From a virus: a stretch of 32,264 bases of DNA. How positions within the stretch are numbered: position 1 is the stretch's first letter; each line of letters starts with the position of its first letter. The notes below the pieces were generated by a model. The model saw only the letters and a program-made list of their open reading frames with translations, was not told the DNA's origin and made no database searches. Below are positions 13,126 to 30,991 of the stretch, one piece after another. The stretch is from positions 1-32,264 of IMG/VR virus record IMGVR_UViG_3300050821_006384; one strand, written 5' to 3'. The position numbers and the translations under genes are program-made.

Positions 13126-13674
13126 GTGGCCATCCAAGCGCTCTCCAGGACCGAGCTTCTCGCCCTGCTTCGTGTCGCCCGCGCACATTCGGAGATGCAC
13201 TTCCTGATGATCCTCGTGGCCTTCAGTCACGGATTAAGAGCCTCGGAAGTCTGCAATCTGCTGGTAGGCGACCTGCGCGGCGGATTCCTGACGGTGCAGA
13301 GACTCAAGGGCTCGAATAGAACGACTCAACCACTCGTTCAGCATCCAGATCCGCTGCTCAACGAGAAAGCCGCGCTCCTCAAGTACACCAGCAATCAGAG
13401 CGCAGATCAGCGGGTATTCGACCGTTCGCGTTATACGTTCTGGCGCATCATGCAGCGACACGGAAGGACCGCGGGACTCCCTGCCCACAAGCTTCATCCT
13501 CACGCGCTCAAGCACTCGATCGCCATGCAGATCATCAGCACCGCTGGTATTGAGAACACCAGGCAGTACCTTGGGCACAAAAGTTTGAGCAGCACTGGAT
13601 TTTATTTGATGAAGACGGACGAAGAGGCTTCGGTTGCCGTAGGGAGAGCCCTGCGTTCGCGCTCCAGGGCTTGA
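13126..13674 (+). CDS. Minimal tyrosine recombinase (catalytic domain only)
   Basis: The product is 182 residues from GTG 13126 (TTG 13124 is out of frame). The catalytic residues of the integrase/XerD family are visible: R38 in HGLRASEV, K61 in RLKGS, H126 in HPHALKH, H151 in YLGHKS and nucleophile Y160 in STGFYLM. The usual H-x-L-R is H-x-L-K here, so the second catalytic Arg is K129. The N-terminal core-binding (SAM-like) domain is missing, giving FimB-like dimensions rather than the 300-400 residues of phage integrases. Its place between structural genes and the terminase is unusual. Confidence 0.8.
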   Translation: MAIQALSRTELLALLRVARAHSEMHFLMILVAFSHGLRASEVCNLLVGDLRGGFLTVQRLKGSNRTTQPLVQHPDPLLNEKAALLKYTSNQSADQRVFDRSRYTFWRIMQRHGRTAGLPAHKLHPHALKHSIAMQIISTAGIENTRQYLGHKSLSSTGFYLMKTDEEASVAVGRALRSRSRA

Positions 13675-18289: not shown

Positions 18290-18616
18290 ATGCGAAGGCG
18301 AGAACTGCTTGCGGCATTGCCAGGCTTGGCGCTAATGCCAACCCTAACGGTTGACGGCAAAGCGAATAAGGCTTTGGCTTATCTTCCGAAGGGCCATTAC
18401 ATGGTTTTCGCGGATGTGCGCGCGGTTGATCTTGAAGGGTTGATGAACACGCCGTCTCCCGAAGGCATTACGATGGATTTAATTCCGGTGCGCCTTGGTC
18501 AAGATCAGACGATTCACGATGTCGTGGCGATCTACAAAACGGATCGGGAGCCAACCATTGGTGAAGTGACGGACTCAGCCGCACAAGCAGAGGATCGCGC
18601 ATTACTCGGACACTAG
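18290..18616 (+). CDS. Putative Tat-leader protein
   Basis: The product is 108 residues, ATG 18290 after AGGAGG (18280-18285). The N-terminus (MRRRELLAALPGLALMPTLT) has a twin-arginine followed by a short hydrophobic core, as in small Tat substrates. The mature part (YMVFADVRAVDLEGLMNTPS ... TIHDVVAIYKTD) is a small mixed fold. No family is recognised. A second small gene with a better Tat motif occurs on the minus strand at 27292-27570. Confidence 0.55.
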   Translation: MRRRELLAALPGLALMPTLTVDGKANKALAYLPKGHYMVFADVRAVDLEGLMNTPSPEGITMDLIPVRLGQDQTIHDVVAIYKTDREPTIGEVTDSAAQAEDRALLGH

Positions 18617-24326: not shown

Positions 24327-24854
24327 ATGACGACAACACGGAACTACCCGAGGCCCGAAAACCCAGTAGTTGACGGAGAAAAGAAGTGCCGTCGTTGCGA
24401 TCAAGTTCTTCCACTTACCGCGTTTCGTTCTAGGAAGCGTAAGAGCGGGAATGTTTATCCGAGTTCTTATTGCAGCGAATGCCACAGGAAAATATCCGCA
24501 GCTTGGGATGCGGCCCATCCGAGAGAAGTTAAAGATAGAAGCGAAAGTTGGCATCGAAGCAATAGGACATACCACTTATTCCTAAACTGGCGTTATCACT
24601 TAATGGCCAAGTACAAGCTCACGCCAGAGAAATACCTTGAACTAGCCGGAGATCCACCGCGCTGCGGCATTTGTGGATTAGAACGGTCGCAGAAAAACAG
24701 GCTTCACGTCGATCATTGCCACATAACTAAAGAGATTCGCGGAATCCTCTGCGCTTCATGCAACCACGCATTAGAACGGATGACCACCATTCCCAACTGG
24801 GCGGCAAAGGCGAAGTTATACCTCCAGCGGGCGGCGAAGGCAGCACCAGCATAA
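24327..24854 (+). CDS. Endonuclease VII-like HNH protein
   Basis: The product is 175 residues, ATG 24327. It has C21-x-x-C24 and C49-x-x-C52 in an N-terminal zinc ribbon. The C-terminal recombination-endonuclease-VII motif is CGICG (113-117), then LHVDHCHITKEIRG with D129-H130 and H132, then LCASCNHALE (141-150). A zinc site by four Cys and a beta-beta-alpha metal active site are predicted. It is a free-standing nuclease inserted between capsid and connector genes, with more AT than its neighbours, typical of mobile (homing-type) genes. It could instead debranch DNA before packaging. Confidence 0.85.
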   Translation: MTTTRNYPRPENPVVDGEKKCRRCDQVLPLTAFRSRKRKSGNVYPSSYCSECHRKISAAWDAAHPREVKDRSESWHRSNRTYHLFLNWRYHLMAKYKLTPEKYLELAGDPPRCGICGLERSQKNRLHVDHCHITKEIRGILCASCNHALERMTTIPNWAAKAKLYLQRAAKAAPA

Positions 24855-25429: not shown

Positions 25430-26158
25430 ATGAAAACTGGCGGAGTAGTACCGACATTCGTTCCTTCGGCGCCTATCGCGCTGCCTACCGAACAAGCGGT
25501 AATCGTCAACATCGCGCAGATACCGTTTGCGGCCGAGCGAACCTATGGCTGCTACCGCATCGAGGGCTGCACGAAGGGCGAGCCTTTCGTGTCGCTTGCG
25601 ATCTCTGCGGCGCGCGGCATCATCCATCGCGGAGATTTAACCATGGGCAAGAATCCCGTTGTCGAGCAGTTCCCCATCAAGGCCGAAGACATCGCCGTCG
25701 ATCTAGTTCGCCAGTGGAACTCCGACCTCTGGGGCATTGGCTCTACTGTGACGGGCGTTGTGGCCGAGGAGCAGGTGCGCGGGTTTGCTGGAGTGTTCGT
25801 CGCCGAAGGCATGACACCCACTGCCGAAGAACTCGCACAGGCTCACGAAATCCTTGCGCTATCCGACAAGGCGCTATTCGAGCGCGCGCAGTCGGAATGG
25901 GACCAGTTTCATCGCCCCGACATGATTCATGCGGGTTGGAAGCGCTCGGCCCGACGGCTGGGCGTGGATGTCGATTGGCTCTACGTCATCAGCAACATGG
26001 CCGCGCTGCCCGATTGCCAATTCTGCGGTTCGAAGATGAAGACCATGACGGCGACAGTGTGCGCGACGTGTCACCGCGAGCAGAATCCAGCAGTTACACA
26101 ACCGATTCCAGCAGTACCGCGCGCGAAGAAGCAGCGCGAACAAAGGAAGGCACTCTAA
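25430..26158 (+). CDS. Hypothetical protein with C-terminal zinc ribbon
   Basis: The product is 242 residues, ATG 25430 after AAAGGA. The first ~85 residues look beta-rich. The middle is helical (EELAQAHEILALSDKALFER). The end has a C-x-x-C (CQFC) and, 13 residues on, C-x-x-C-H (CATCH), forming a zinc ribbon. A basic tail (PRAKKQREQRKAL) closes it. No family name can be given. Its place among connector genes suggests a head/tail joining role. Confidence 0.6.
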   Translation: MKTGGVVPTFVPSAPIALPTEQAVIVNIAQIPFAAERTYGCYRIEGCTKGEPFVSLAISAARGIIHRGDLTMGKNPVVEQFPIKAEDIAVDLVRQWNSDLWGIGSTVTGVVAEEQVRGFAGVFVAEGMTPTAEELAQAHEILALSDKALFERAQSEWDQFHRPDMIHAGWKRSARRLGVDVDWLYVISNMAALPDCQFCGSKMKTMTATVCATCHREQNPAVTQPIPAVPRAKKQREQRKAL

Positions 26159-26520
26159 TGGCCGTAAAAGTCACTCCAACATTCGTTATCGAAGACCTCG
26201 ACGCCATCGAACTCTATGGCAACTTAACACTCACGGGCAATTATCCGGCCGGCGGCGATACAGTGGACTTCACCGGCTCAGTCGGTTATCAGAGCCCCAA
26301 TGGCCGCATCTTCGCGCCAGCGGGACCGCCCATCGCTGGTAGTGGCTCGGTCGTCGGGAGTTGTGGCGATAGCTTTGCGCTCGTCGCTGGCAACGCGCTC
26401 AATAACAGCAAACTCATCATCAACACTGCCAGCAACACGCCGGAGGGTACAGGCGCCTATGGAGCCGAGCTTCTCGCCGACGCCAACATCAACTTCTCCA
26501 TCATCTTCCCCAAGGGATAG
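26158..26520 (+). CDS. Small beta-rich putative decoration protein
   Basis: The product is 120 residues, ATG 26158 sharing the last two bases region of the previous stop (TAATG). It consists of short strands with Gly/Asn turns (AIELYGNLTLTGNYPAGGDT ... SGSVVGSCGDSFALVAGN ...). The size and composition suit a capsid decoration or minor structural protein. The call is based on composition and position. Confidence 0.55.
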   Translation: MAVKVTPTFVIEDLDAIELYGNLTLTGNYPAGGDTVDFTGSVGYQSPNGRIFAPAGPPIAGSGSVVGSCGDSFALVAGNALNNSKLIINTASNTPEGTGAYGAELLADANINFSIIFPKG

Positions 26521-26523
26521 CGC

Positions 26524-27297
26524 GTGGCCATCGCGCAACCCTCCGGCGCAGGGCAAACCGCCTACGCCACCCTCAGTACCGTCTTCACTCTGGTCCGCTC
26601 CCTCGTCAACGATGCGCTGGGAAGCTGGGCCACCGATGCGGTCCTCCTGCCTTACGCGAACTCGGCCTACCGGCACGTCAACTCCGAACTCGGCAATGTC
26701 CAGGCGCCGTCCTACATCAAGGACGACGTCTTGATGGTTCTGCCCGCAGTAGCGGGACAGGATGCAAGCGTTCAAGCCGTGCTGAACAACGCCGGATTCA
26801 ACAACGGCACTTCTAACTTCACCACGTACTCCGGGGTAGTTCTTCAGCTCCCCGTCGATCTCATGGTTCCGCTGAGAATCGAGGAGCGCACCGCAGGCTC
26901 GACCGAAGAGTGGATCGAGATCACCGACATGACCGACGCCGGCGGCTTGCCCGAACAGTTGCAAGGCTCGCGTCTCTGCTACTGGGAATGGAGAACGGAC
27001 GGAATCTACCTTCTCGGAGCCACACAAGACGAGCAGATCAAGTTGAGATATGAAGCGGCTTTCCTCGACATGACGGACGGCACGAGTCCGTTGGAGATCA
27101 GGGACGGGCAGAACGCCGTAGCGTTCAAGACTGCGGAACTGGTAGCTCTCGCCCGTGGCGGCGCAATGGCTCCGCTGATGAAACCGCAGTATGACGATGC
27201 AATCGAGCTTCTCAAGAACCGTGTCGCGCAACGGGAACAGCACGTCGGCAGACGGCGGAAAGCGTACACGTCACGGCATGGAAGAAGTTGGCTATGA
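26524..27297 (+). CDS. Head-tail adaptor
   Basis: The product is 257 residues from GTG 26524. It begins with a helical bundle pattern seen in P22 gp4-type connectors (VRSLVNDALGSWATDAVLLP, then YANSAYRHVNSEL). A beta-rich middle follows (WEWRTDGIYLLGATQDEQIK). The last part is basic and helical (KNRVAQREQHVGRRRKAY). The position before the large tail protein agrees. Its 3' end overlaps the convergent minus-strand gene by six bases. Confidence 0.65.
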   Translation: MAIAQPSGAGQTAYATLSTVFTLVRSLVNDALGSWATDAVLLPYANSAYRHVNSELGNVQAPSYIKDDVLMVLPAVAGQDASVQAVLNNAGFNNGTSNFTTYSGVVLQLPVDLMVPLRIEERTAGSTEEWIEITDMTDAGGLPEQLQGSRLCYWEWRTDGIYLLGATQDEQIKLRYEAAFLDMTDGTSPLEIRDGQNAVAFKTAELVALARGGAMAPLMKPQYDDAIELLKNRVAQREQHVGRRRKAYTSRHGRSWL

Positions 27298-27570
27298 GTC
27301 CCAAGGAAAGCGCACATCTTCAAGACGCGGCACAACTCCAGGGGGCAGCAGCATCTCGATACGATCCAGTCCTGCGCCCTGAGTTATTTCAAATGCGCGT
27401 GCGCTTTTTCCGATGTAGGTCCCATCGAAATTAAGTGAACCGCTGATCGTGAACCATTCCGGCTCTGGCAGAAACAACTTCCTTCCGAAGTCAAAGACCA
27501 GTCGATTTGGACTGAAAGCGACGAACGCTCCCACGCGAATTAGCCCGGAAATGAAAGAGCGGCGGTTCAT
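27292..27570 (-). CDS. Small Tat-leader protein on minus strand
   Basis: The product is 92 residues on the minus strand, ATG at 27570. MNRRSFISGLIRVGAFVAFS is a clear twin-arginine leader (N-R-R-S-F-I-S), of the kind seen in small genes that phages of soil bacteria carry near tail genes. The mature part is beta-rich (WFTISGSLNFDGTYIGKSAR) and ends with a Pro-rich element (MLLPPGVVPRLEDVRFPW). It is translationally coupled by TGATG to the upstream minus-strand gene. It lies antisense within the late module and overlaps the adaptor gene end by six bases. The function is unknown. Confidence 0.6.
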   Translation of the reverse strand: MNRRSFISGLIRVGAFVAFSPNRLVFDFGRKLFLPEPEWFTISGSLNFDGTYIGKSARAFEITQGAGLDRIEMLLPPGVVPRLEDVRFPWDS

Positions 27571-27749
27571 CAGGATGCCACGGCTACCGGCCGAGGCTCT
27601 TGCAGAATACGATCCAGTGCATCGGCGATTCTCAAACGTTCCAGGCATTGAGGGCACTTCTCACCATCTTCTCTTGGGCGTTCACACACAGCAGAGTCCG
27701 CGCGTAGCCTTTCAACGTAATTCTGGATGTCGAGTCGCAGCGTAGTCAC
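27570..27749 (-). CDS. Small Cys-pair protein heading minus-strand operon
   Basis: The product is 59 residues on the minus strand from GTG 27749, with TTAGGA about ten bases upstream. The product (TLRLDIQNYVERLRADSAVC ... EKCPQCLERLRIADALDRIL) is helical with C-x-x-C (CPQC) and an extra Cys, possibly a zinc or redox site. It ends by sharing its final A with the ATG of the Tat-leader gene (TGATG), which is good evidence that both are real. Only 14 bases separate it from the divergent large tail gene, so its promoter must lie within that gene. Confidence 0.55.
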   Translation of the reverse strand: MTTLRLDIQNYVERLRADSAVCERPREDGEKCPQCLERLRIADALDRILQEPRPVAVAS

Positions 27750-27763
27750 TCCGAAATCCTAAC

Positions 27764-30700
27764 ATGAGCGTCACCGGAACCGTTGACATCAGTTTGGACA
27801 GTATGGGCGGCCTTGTCTTAGACATGGCTCCGTCTGATCTACCGGATGGAGTTTCGCCCGATTGCCAGGATGTCGCGTTCAAGCCTGGCGCGGTATTCAC
27901 TCGCCCTGGCCTCGCTTCTCTGTTCGCTGCAATCGCGGGCAATCCCACGCTGACTTATCTGAAAACTTACACTCAGCCGAACCTCACCGAAGTTCTGTTG
28001 GCCCTAGATTCATTGGGCTCGCTTTGGTCAGCGCAGACGGTCGCACTCGCACAGATCAATGCGGGAGTTGGCCAAGCCATCGTTGCGGGCGCGCGCGGCA
28101 AATCCACCACGCTATTTGGCAGGGAATATCTCGCGTTAGGGGACGGTAAGTTCGGCATCGACATCCCGCGGCAGTATGACGGCACGTTTTTTGACCGCGT
28201 GAGCCAAGTGGGACCGGGTGAGCCGGGAATTATCGGCGACGCTCCCGGTGCGGCAGTGAATATCGCGGCATCCGCCACTGGACTAATCCCACTGACCGAC
28301 AATATAGCTACAAGTTTTAGCAACGGCGCTGGATACATCTTCGTCCTTGTGACGGCTCCGAATCCGCCGGCAGGAACGGTACAGGTCGGCGACAAAATGA
28401 AGCTAGCCGGCACGACGAACGGCCTGGACGGGGAATGGGCTGTCTCGGCCATCGGCGCTTATGGTTACACCTACACGCTTGCATCTCCGCTTAAGAACGC
28501 CGCAGTCGCTCATGCCGGAACAATCACCTACAACCTAACGAAAACTACTACAACGACCGCCAACACCATGTTTTTAGGGGGCACGGGAACCATAGCTGGC
28601 GCCGGAGTTGCTGGCTATAACGGCACCTGGAACGTCCGCAGCATAACCAGCAACACGGTTTGCATTCTGTACATCACCGGAGCCGATGCCTTGGCGAACT
28701 CCGGCGGTGGAACATTAGCTGGGGGCGGCTCGATCTCAGCCGGAGTGCATGGGTTCGGTGTCCTGTTCGTGACGCGGCAGGGATACATCACTAAGCCTTC
28801 ATCAACGATTAACTGGAATGCGGCCGGGAACATGGGAGCGGCGGCGGGACAAATCCCCATCGGCCCATCGAACATTAAGCAGCGGATTCTGATCTTCACC
28901 GTCGCGGCCGGAGCGAATTTCTTCTACCTGCCCTCATTCATCATCAACGACAACACCACGACATCCTTTACGGTCAGTTTCACCGATGCGGCTCTAGCGG
29001 CCGGAACTCCGGTCAATGCTCCCGGCCAGAACCTCTTCATTCAGGTCGAGCTTGGCGAATCTTTAGGCTCTATTGGCTATGCGGGCCGCGTGTTCTGGTG
29101 GGGCGAGCGCAACCACATCAACAATTTCCAAAACCTTACCTTCGATGGCGGCTGGGACTTGGCTGGTGGGACGGGCGGATCGGACGTGCCTCTCGGCTGG
29201 GCGTCTGACGCCACGTATGGCGCGGGCGGCTCGAAAGATAGCGTCAATGTGGTGTGGGGCGACGCCTACCGGATCACCGGCAACGGCAATGCGAACGTGG
29301 GGATGATTACGCAGTCGGTCTTTCAGGATTTCCTGAGCGCGCGCATCCTGCAGGACCAGACGGCCTATTCGGTGCGCGTGAAGGCCAAGAAGGGCGGCGG
29401 CATAACCCAGGGCAATCTGACCATCGACATATACTCCCCATCGCTCGCCATGACGCTCGGCACGTTGTCAATCCCGGTTGCGGCTATCGGAACCACCGTT
29501 TTCTCGGAGACCATTTCGGCGCTCATTACCGCGCAGAACATCGCCGCCGACGCGGTTTTGCGGGTTTATCTGACGGGAACTCCGACCAATGGCGGCTGGA
29601 TCGTAATCGACAACATCGAGCTATACCCCACCGCGACGCCCTACCTTGCGACTCAGGTGCGCGCAAGTTCCATCTTTGCGAACTTCGGCGGTGCATTGCC
29701 GGAAGGATTCGACGGCGTTTCCGGCGTGCTGCAGATGAACCAGAACGCGCAGCCGGTCAGGGCCGCTTTCGTCATCACCGACAGATCATCGCTAACCGCC
29801 AATGACCATCTTCACTTCGTCAAGGAAGGCTCGCTCTATCGCACGCAGGACAATGGCGGATTGCCTTCCACCTGGTCGATCACGCAGGTGTCCGGAGTCG
29901 TCGGGACGCCTTCGGTGCATGGCGTGGATGTCGGAGAAGACTGGGTGGTGATCGCGCATCCTAGCGGCTTGTATCTCTACTACTTCGGCTCAGAACCCAA
30001 CAAGATCAGCCAGGAGATTCAACCGCTTTGGGATCAAATCAACTGGTCTCAAGCGGGTCATACGGTCTGGGTACGAGTGGATACGCTCAACAAGCGCATC
30101 CTCGTGGGCGCTCCATTCAACGGGGCGCTCACGCCCAACAAGATACTCGCGCTCGACTATCGCGGCCTCATCTCCGCCTCGCAGATCATCGAGACGCCGC
30201 CGGTACATTTCTCGGCCTACTCGGGGAAGATACTCAGCTTAGGACTCGGCCGGAAATGGTCGCCCTGGACGATCTCAGCTAATTGCGCGTGGTTTGAGGC
30301 GCCGAACGAAGAACTTGGAGTCGGCCAGGCGGGCATGTTCTTCGGGAACTCGGCTGGCAACGGCAAGATCTACAACCTGCAGAATAGCCAGCTCTCCGAC
30401 GACGGCGTGGCCATCCCGAGTTACTACCAGACCTACTACTTCCCCTCGCAGATTCAGGAGCCGATGCTGAAACTGAGGACGCATCGCAAACTATTCTCGT
30501 ATCTCACCGGCTTCATCGAAGGATCGGGGAGTCTAAGCCTTTCCGCTTTCCTCGACGGCAATCAATTCTCGAATCCCCTGCCTTCATTGAACCTGATCAA
30601 CACCGCAGCGCCCTCGGCAATCACCACCATCACGCGAAAGAACGGCCTCGTCACCGTTACGTGTGCGCTGGGGCATGGGCTCACTCAGGGAATAGACCTC

Positions 30701-30991
30701 GCCGTAGTGATCGGCGGAGTGGCGGACAACTCCATGAACGGAGTTTTCCCTATCCAGCAAATACTGAGCGCGACCGCCTTCACGGTGTCGCAGATCGGCC
30801 TCGCCGACAGCTATCAACTCTTCGGAAACGTGGGCCGACTGCTGCGAGATTTCGAATTAACCACGAATCTAGAGGGCGAACGCTGCTCCTACAAGTTCGC
30901 AACGAACGGATTAAATGCTTGGTTCAGACTCCAGAAGCTGTCGCCTTCGCTGCAAAACTCAGCATGGGCGCCTGTGCGCGGTGGTATGTGA
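27764..30991 (+). CDS. Large tail protein with carbohydrate-binding-like domain
   Basis: The product is 1075 residues, ATG 27764. The N-terminus (GGLVLDMAPSDLPDGVSPDC and KPGAVFTRPGL, about 15-50) is one I associate with large phage tail or stabilisation proteins. Small barrel-like repeats recur near 199-256, 272-320 and 952-1012 (each with a Gly-x-Asn/Asp-Gly-x-W/F element). Residues about 450-622 (LGWASDATYGAGGSKDSVNV ... GGWIVIDNIELYP) look like a CBM/CenC-type jelly-roll that binds carbohydrate. It could be a receptor-contacting tail hub component. It is coupled to the next gene by TGATG. Confidence 0.65.
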   Translation: MSVTGTVDISLDSMGGLVLDMAPSDLPDGVSPDCQDVAFKPGAVFTRPGLASLFAAIAGNPTLTYLKTYTQPNLTEVLLALDSLGSLWSAQTVALAQINAGVGQAIVAGARGKSTTLFGREYLALGDGKFGIDIPRQYDGTFFDRVSQVGPGEPGIIGDAPGAAVNIAASATGLIPLTDNIATSFSNGAGYIFVLVTAPNPPAGTVQVGDKMKLAGTTNGLDGEWAVSAIGAYGYTYTLASPLKNAAVAHAGTITYNLTKTTTTTANTMFLGGTGTIAGAGVAGYNGTWNVRSITSNTVCILYITGADALANSGGGTLAGGGSISAGVHGFGVLFVTRQGYITKPSSTINWNAAGNMGAAAGQIPIGPSNIKQRILIFTVAAGANFFYLPSFIINDNTTTSFTVSFTDAALAAGTPVNAPGQNLFIQVELGESLGSIGYAGRVFWWGERNHINNFQNLTFDGGWDLAGGTGGSDVPLGWASDATYGAGGSKDSVNVVWGDAYRITGNGNANVGMITQSVFQDFLSARILQDQTAYSVRVKAKKGGGITQGNLTIDIYSPSLAMTLGTLSIPVAAIGTTVFSETISALITAQNIAADAVLRVYLTGTPTNGGWIVIDNIELYPTATPYLATQVRASSIFANFGGALPEGFDGVSGVLQMNQNAQPVRAAFVITDRSSLTANDHLHFVKEGSLYRTQDNGGLPSTWSITQVSGVVGTPSVHGVDVGEDWVVIAHPSGLYLYYFGSEPNKISQEIQPLWDQINWSQAGHTVWVRVDTLNKRILVGAPFNGALTPNKILALDYRGLISASQIIETPPVHFSAYSGKILSLGLGRKWSPWTISANCAWFEAPNEELGVGQAGMFFGNSAGNGKIYNLQNSQLSDDGVAIPSYYQTYYFPSQIQEPMLKLRTHRKLFSYLTGFIEGSGSLSLSAFLDGNQFSNPLPSLNLINTAAPSAITTITRKNGLVTVTCALGHGLTQGIDLAVVIGGVADNSMNGVFPIQQILSATAFTVSQIGLADSYQLFGNVGRLLRDFELTTNLEGERCSYKFATNGLNAWFRLQKLSPSLQNSAWAPVRGGM

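What the first reader, a model, noticed from the sequence alone, without database searches (positions are those of the whole stretch)
27292..27749. Two-gene minus-strand operon with Tat leader inside the late module
Two small genes with exact TGATG coupling run against the structural operon. Only 14 bases separate them from the divergent 1075-residue tail gene, and the last codons overlap the adaptor gene. The second carries a textbook twin-arginine leader, which exports folded proteins; the first has a C-x-x-C pair. A promoter would have to lie inside the tail gene. This suggests expression at a different time from virion genes (lysogeny or early). It is a candidate for an undescribed envelope-protection or exclusion system.
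Basis: partly seen in the sequence, partly recalled or inferred. Interest (0 to 1): 0.6.

Follow-up and report, generated by a model that had tools for sequence, protein, structure and literature searches.

The report
Antisense cargo genes beside tail gene
A virus of soil Acidobacteria appears to carry two tiny extra genes, written backwards between two of its particle-building genes, one of which looks built to be shipped out of the bacterial cell; relatives carry different extra genes, or none, at the same spot, so this is probably exchangeable cargo whose job is still unknown.

Summary
Two minus-strand ORFs (59 and 92 aa) overlap as TGATG, end 6 nt inside the adaptor gene and start 14 nt from the divergent 1075-aa tail gene. 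A coupled pair with a twin-arginine leader never arose in 40,000 simulated 466-bp junctions, although the scoring pattern was shaped on this ORF. The leader is good, not textbook: Arg12 breaks the hydrophobic stretch and no clear A-x-A site follows.

I recovered the phage family (51 distinct adaptor-tail junctions). Prophage relatives lie in Acidobacteriota MAGs. The pair has no homolog in them or in any other collection searched. The junction is instead a cargo hotspot: fused, short non-coding, a structural gene only, antisense HNH genes, an antisense exported NHL-repeat gene under protein-level constraint, or up to 7 kb of sense cargo. Near relatives carry other antisense Sec-leader genes between virion genes; L072 has another antisense RR-leader ORF.

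Best reading: a lineage-specific moron, analogous to the P22 "ant moron", probably acting at the envelope. Superinfection exclusion is a reasonable but untested guess.

The parts
27570..27749 (-). P0002: first ORF of the pair, 59 aa, GTG start, C22 and C32-x2-C35; predicted helical hairpin (helices 3-20 and 33-50)
   Evidence: AF2 single-sequence mean pLDDT 82.7; no homolog; codon test inconclusive
27292..27570 (-). P0001: second ORF, 92 aa, twin-arginine leader MNRRSFISGLIRVGAFVAFS, about 70-aa downstream part without cysteine
   Evidence: chance of RR-leader ORF 20/40,000, coupled 0/40,000; codon score above 97% of shadows; AF2 mean pLDDT 55, low confidence; no homolog
27568..27572 (-). TGATG stop-start overlap coupling P0002 to P0001
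   Evidence: sequence
27757..27760 (-). Shine-Dalgarno-like AGGA, 7 nt upstream of the GTG of P0002
   Evidence: sequence
27298..27763 (.). Adaptor-tail junction (466 bp), the cargo site; its length varies from -4 bp to 7 kb in relatives
26524..27297 (+). Adaptor-like gene upstream of the junction (257 aa)
   Evidence: homologs at 25-50% identity in 58 loci of the family
27764..30991 (+). Large tail gene (1075 aa), divergent from the pair
   Evidence: alignment A1, 43 viral and 4 genomic loci
26158..26520 (+). Small structural-type gene; in L064, L078 and L079 its homolog lies inside the adaptor-tail junction, here it lies 5' of the adaptor

Best explanation
The pair is a lineage-specific cargo module (a moron) inserted antisense in a hotspot between the adaptor and tail genes of an acidobacterial phage. 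Proposed working: being antisense, it is not translated from the late transcript, so it must have its own minus-strand promoter inside the 5' part of the tail gene and be expressed at another time, most plausibly from the prophage. P0002, a helical hairpin with three cysteines that could bind a metal, is made first and stays in the cytoplasm. P0001 is translated by coupling. Its RR leader delivers its small domain to the Tat translocase, so that it ends up in, or facing outward from, the cytoplasmic membrane. There it would change the envelope of the lysogen, for example by blocking entry of related phages, as P22 SieA does. Shown: position, overlap, absence from relatives, cargo turnover at the site, and other antisense exported genes in the family. 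Inferred: that the ORFs are expressed, Tat export, timing, and envelope function. My estimates: real genes 0.8; independently expressed moron 0.65; Tat or membrane export 0.6; superinfection exclusion specifically 0.2.
For: Exact geometry, AGGA and TGATG. Chance test 0/40,000 for the coupled RR-leader pair. P0002 folds confidently from its single sequence as a helical hairpin. 51 distinct junctions in related phages show strong turnover at this site: fused in L072, 160-245 bp non-coding in L043, L048 and L067, a structural gene only in many, antisense HNH genes in L044 (PF01844, E = 6e-11) and L023 (HNH-like by eye), an antisense ~670-aa exported NHL-repeat gene in L017, L019, L022 and L024 (aa identity 40-58%, third codon position most variable in its own frame), and sense cargo up to 7 kb. 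In relatives close in tail sequence, another antisense Sec-leader family sits between virion genes: L064 twice, L067 once, L078 three times. In prophage L094 the same family is in sense orientation, as expected of cargo. L072 has a separate antisense RR-leader ORF of 94 aa converging on the end of the tail gene. Relatives lie in four Acidobacteriota MAGs and the window has an integrase, so lysogeny is plausible.
Against: No homolog of either ORF anywhere, so no dN/dS test was possible. P0002's codon use is like shadow frames. No promoter-like site upstream. The h-region of P0001 is broken by Arg12 and lacks a clear cleavage site. Some relatives have simple non-coding spacers at this junction, so a spacer with chance ORFs is not absurd. 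The integrase found is only 182 aa, and lysogeny of this phage itself is not shown. P0001's downstream part is not predicted with confidence.
Confidence: 0.55

Rival explanations
1. Not genes: the 466-bp junction is a non-coding spacer and both ORFs are chance open frames.
For: No homologs anywhere. P0002 codon use is not above shadow frames, and a 98-aa + strand ORF scores about as well on amino-acid composition. Relatives L031, L043, L048, L067 and L077 have apparently non-coding spacers of 160-393 bp here.
Against: Coupled RR-leader pair 0/40,000 in simulation. Ribosome-binding site and exact overlap. P0001 codon score above 97% of shadows. P0002 predicted with pLDDT 83 from a single sequence. 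A genuine cargo gene of the same phage also fails the codon test.
Confidence: 0.2
2. Lysis-control cargo: P0001 is a small exported regulator of lysis (antiholin-like, such as T4 RI, from general knowledge) rather than an exclusion protein.
For: In L072 the antisense RR-leader ORF lies directly beside a gene for a hydrophobic, holin-like protein and near a cell-wall-hydrolase-like gene (my reading of the ORFs). Size (92-94 aa) and a leader plus small domain resemble RI.
Against: No sequence similarity beyond the leader between P0001 and the L072 ORF. P0001 is not next to lysis genes in the window. Antisense orientation would separate it from late lysis timing. P0001 has no cysteine downstream of its leader.
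Confidence: 0.1
3. Regulatory role: antisense transcription from this module, rather than its proteins, tunes expression of the tail gene.
For: A promoter for the pair would have to lie in the tail gene's 5' part. [quoted passage not shown]
Against: Most relatives lack any antisense gene here. The RR leader and coupling are unexplained by a pure RNA role.
Confidence: 0.07
4. Remnant of an antisense HNH homing-type endonuclease gene like those in L023 and L044, the CxxC of P0002 being a leftover zinc knuckle.
For: L023 has an antisense HNH-like gene starting 18 nt from its tail gene, and L044 one overlapping its tail start by its first codons.
Against: No similarity of P0001 or P0002 to those proteins or to any HNH family. 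P0001's leader is not part of such enzymes.
Confidence: 0.04

Closest known systems
P22 'ant moron' (region between gene 16 and the tailspike gene 9, including sieA; PMC2629481, PMC10883804)
   Same: A region of variable length and content just 5' of a tail gene in the late operon of short-tailed phages, absent in some relatives, carrying genes not needed for virion assembly; [quoted passage not shown]
   Different: No sequence relation. P22 SieA has three predicted transmembrane segments and no obvious signal sequence; here a twin-arginine leader and a small downstream domain, coupled to a cytoplasmic hairpin. In the acidobacterial family cargo also occurs at other virion-gene junctions.
HK97 gp15 moron and Ltp-type lipoproteins (superinfection exclusion; titles and abstracts)
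   Same: Small phage proteins at the host membrane or surface, described as excluding other phages.
   Different: Ltp is a lipoprotein. Neither is described there as Tat-dependent or as an antisense coupled pair; no homology found to P0001.
Antisense exported cargo of the same phage family: NHL-repeat gene (L017, L019, L022, L024) and Sec-leader CYWT family (L064, L067, L078)
   Same: Minus-strand genes with export-type leaders at junctions between late genes of the same phage family.
   Different: Unrelated sequences, Sec-type leaders, larger proteins; these are shared by several relatives and, for the NHL gene, show protein-level constraint.
Small MNRRSF-leader ORFs of other viral contigs (L004, L007, L010, L012 etc.)
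   Same: Short phage-contig ORFs with RR leaders, some coupled by overlap to a small upstream gene (for example L010).
   Different: No similarity beyond the leader; mostly on the same strand as their neighbours.

Membership tests
Moron (independently expressed cargo in a phage operon) | Present in one phage and absent at the same junction of relatives | tested here: met
   0 of 51 distinct related junctions hold the pair; the junction is fused or short in some
Moron (independently expressed cargo in a phage operon) | Composition differs from flanking virion genes | tested here: met
   GC3 0.54 and 0.51 against 0.73 and 0.70 in adaptor and tail
Moron (independently expressed cargo in a phage operon) | Own promoter and terminator | tested here: inconclusive
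   No sigma-70-like promoter upstream; two weak terminator-like sites, about as many as in shuffles; promoters of Acidobacteriota may not fit this consensus
Moron (independently expressed cargo in a phage operon) | Expressed from the prophage | not testable with these tools
   needs RNA-seq of a lysogen
Tat substrate | Twin-arginine motif Z-R-R-x-hydrophobic-hydrophobic near the N-terminus | tested here: met
   N-R-R-S-F-I at residues 2-7
Tat substrate | Moderately hydrophobic uninterrupted h-region and A-x-A cleavage site | tested here: inconclusive
   Arg12 interrupts the h-region; best 17-mer 1.41; no clear A-x-A
Tat substrate | Match to curated Tat-signal or Tat-protein families | tested here: not met
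   no match in NCBIfam or Pfam at the thresholds used; short leader models often miss
Known superinfection-exclusion or defence families | Sequence match to such a family | tested here: not met
   no match in PADLOC, PHROGs, Pfam or NCBIfam
Superinfection exclusion function | Expression of the pair alone blocks related phages | not testable with these tools
   needs cultured host and phage

The most novel reading that the evidence does not exclude
Acidobacterial short-tailed phages keep an exchangeable set of antisense, exported single genes or gene pairs at the seams between their virion genes (Tat-leader pair, Sec-leader CYWT family, NHL-repeat protein), a distributed prophage-expressed envelope-modification system of which this pair is the first Tat-routed example.
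Probability: 0.25. Interest if true: 0.65.

Novelty: new member of a known kind. Interest (0 to 1): 0.4.

Why it matters
Little is known about acidobacterial phages, although their hosts are abundant in soils. The finding marks a cargo site at a fixed address (just 5' of the tail gene) in a phage family found in many public viral contigs, and shows that exported genes written against the late genes recur there. That gives a concrete list of small envelope-targeted proteins to test for lysogenic conversion or exclusion. If Tat export is confirmed, it would add a route not described for exclusion proteins in the papers I could search.

Tried and rejected
Direct homology searches for P0001 and P0002 (viral contigs, phage records, Acidobacteriota genomes, PHROGs, Pfam, NCBIfam, PADLOC; PDB for P0001) gave nothing. 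The marginal hits in host genomes were checked and rejected: they are as many as expected by chance over 396 genomes, and the one whose context I listed (L085) is the antisense of a tryptophan-synthase-like gene.

Single-protein scans with the adaptor, capsid-position gene and terminase found no relatives; the motif F-x-PG-x-V-x-TRPG of the tail N-terminus did.

A DNA scan for MNRRSF leaders gave 15 contigs with unrelated proteins. I considered the L072 RR-leader ORF as a homolog and rejected it: similarity ends after the leader.

Codon and amino-acid classifiers cannot decide for cargo genes, since the endonuclease VII control fails too. The fold comparison of P0002 gave no significant match. 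Literature searches for phage-encoded Tat-routed exclusion proteins found none.

Full report
WHAT IS THERE. P0002 (27570-27749, GTG, 59 aa, MTTLRLDIQNYVERLRADSAVCERPREDGEKCPQCLERLRIADALDRILQEPRPVAVAS) stops with a TGA whose A begins the ATG of P0001 (27292-27570, 92 aa, MNRRSFISGLIRVGAFVAFSPNRLVFDFGRKLFLPEPEWFTISGSLNFDGTYIGKSARAFEITQGAGLDRIEMLLPPGVVPRLEDVRFPWDS). P0001 ends 6 nt inside the adaptor gene. P0002 starts 14 nt from the divergent tail gene, whose start is firm because tails of relatives align from residue 1. An AGGA lies 7 nt before the GTG.

IS IT MORE THAN CHANCE. In 40,000 first-order Markov versions of the 466-bp junction, 20 had a strict RR-leader ORF of 60 aa or more on either strand, and none had one coupled to an upstream ORF of 50 aa or more. 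The pattern was shaped on P0001, so this is somewhat optimistic. Among 3,299 tiles of the same size from relatives, two had an RR-leader ORF, one of them the likely real L072 ORF, and none had a coupled pair. Codon statistics trained on the family's long genes put P0001 above about 97% of shadow frames and leave P0002 undecided; the phage's own endonuclease VII gene (24327-24854), a clear gene by homology, also fails this test, so cargo cannot be judged by it. P0002 alone is predicted as a helical hairpin with mean pLDDT 82.7. P0001 is poorly predicted (55).

THE LEADER. N-R-R-S-F-I is a good twin-arginine motif, but Arg12 interrupts the hydrophobic region, the best 17-residue mean hydropathy is 1.41, and there is no clear A-x-A. 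Low hydrophobicity fits Tat better than Sec (general knowledge; the theme of PMC5539426, seen only as title and abstract). I call it a probable, not a textbook, Tat leader.

FINDING RELATIVES. Neither protein has a detectable homolog. Searches with whole neighbouring proteins also failed. A degenerate DNA motif for the tail N-terminus recovered 19 contigs. An alignment of their tails recovered 43 viral loci and four loci in Acidobacteriota MAGs, two labelled Terriglobia. L077/L094 lies within a 127-kb MAG contig with terminase, portal-position, capsid-position and tail homologs in order. The host of this family is therefore most likely Acidobacteriota, and integration probably occurs in it; binning errors in MAGs are the caveat.

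THE JUNCTION IS A CARGO SITE. In 51 distinct related junctions the adaptor-to-tail distance runs from an overlap of 4 nt (L072) to 7 kb. Contents: non-coding 160-245 bp (L043, L048, L067); one small structural-type gene (many), which in the window lies 5' of the adaptor instead; an antisense HNH gene in L044 (PF01844, E = 6e-11) and an antisense HNH-like gene in L023 starting 18 nt from the tail gene; an antisense gene of about 670 aa with an export leader and NHL repeats in L017, L019, L022 and L024; a sense helicase-like gene in L074; and a sense 1.1-1.3-kaa gene with an N-terminal leader in about twelve phages. The antisense NHL gene is certainly a gene: its four copies are 40-58% identical and the third position of its own codons varies most. 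None of the junctions has P0001 or P0002.

ANTISENSE EXPORTED GENES RECUR. In relatives close in tail sequence (tail N-terminus 62-67% identical) another family with a Sec-type leader and a conserved C-[YF]-W-T-x-G-R core is antisense between late genes: twice in L064 (5' and 3' of the capsid-position gene), once in L067, three times in L078. In prophage L094 two copies are in sense orientation between terminase and portal positions, and further relatives exist in other Acidobacteriota genomes outside such a context. L072 has a 94-aa antisense RR-leader ORF (MERRSFFGILFGG...) whose last 4 nt overlap the end of its tail gene, beside holin-like and cell-wall-hydrolase-like genes. It shares only the leader with P0001.

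INTERPRETATION. The pair is best read as lineage-specific cargo: a moron placed antisense in a hotspot. Because it opposes the late genes it needs its own promoter, which must lie in the tail gene, and it is likely expressed apart from virion production, for example in the lysogen. P0001 would be delivered to or across the membrane by Tat; P0002 would stay inside. [quoted passage not shown] PMC10883804). This is 'works like', not membership: there is no sequence relation, and SieA has no obvious signal sequence. Promoter, expression, export and function are all untested; the promoter scan was negative.

VERDICT. Observation confirmed; interpretation partly supported. The wider pattern, recurring antisense exported genes at seams of the late region of acidobacterial phages, is the more interesting result.

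Noticed in passing
window 18290-18616 (+): Second RR-leader ORF in the same phage, MRRRELLAALPGLALMPTLTVDG..., 108 aa, with gene-like codon and amino-acid scores and no homologs in the libraries searched.
   Followed up: partly
L064 1421-1870(-) and 4320-4745(-); L067 1328-1741(-); L078 2141-2590, 6004-6444, 6529-6939(-); L094 5365-5766 and 6138-6527(+): Multi-copy family of Sec-leader proteins (core KTPE.A..CYWT.GR, C-terminal GDFEVCPLEPER...CIESAKN), antisense between late genes of phages close to this one, sense in a prophage; no family-library match except a sub-threshold one.
   Followed up: partly
L017, L019, L022, L024, adaptor-tail junction (-): Antisense ~670-aa exported NHL-repeat gene with an ASH/Cep192-like Ig domain and a C-terminal hydrophobic stretch plus a GC motif, ending 4-20 nt from the adaptor stop; under protein-level constraint.
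   Followed up: partly
L072 10463-10747 (-): 94-aa antisense RR-leader ORF converging on the tail gene's end, next to holin-like and cell-wall-hydrolase-like genes.
   Followed up: partly
adaptor-tail junctions of L038, L040-L042, L045, L053, L054, L058, L065, L066, L071, L076: A 1.1-1.3-kaa sense gene beginning MIRSK..GILW..AL.L.PG...GQGSRKDDIVFN with a Sec-like N-terminal leader, unusual for what by position and size could be a tail fibre; one copy has no Pfam match.
   Followed up: partly
window 27359-27370 and 27607-27618: Exact 12-nt direct repeat ATACGATCCAGT that encodes LDRI in frame in both P0001 and P0002; origin unexplained.
   Followed up: no
window 24327-24854 (+): Endonuclease VII-type gene between the capsid-position gene and the 24856 gene, the same seam where L064 and L078 carry the antisense CYWT family; a second cargo seam.
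   Followed up: partly
window 13126-13674 (+): Tyrosine-integrase catalytic domain of only 182 aa, without the usual N-terminal part.
   Followed up: no
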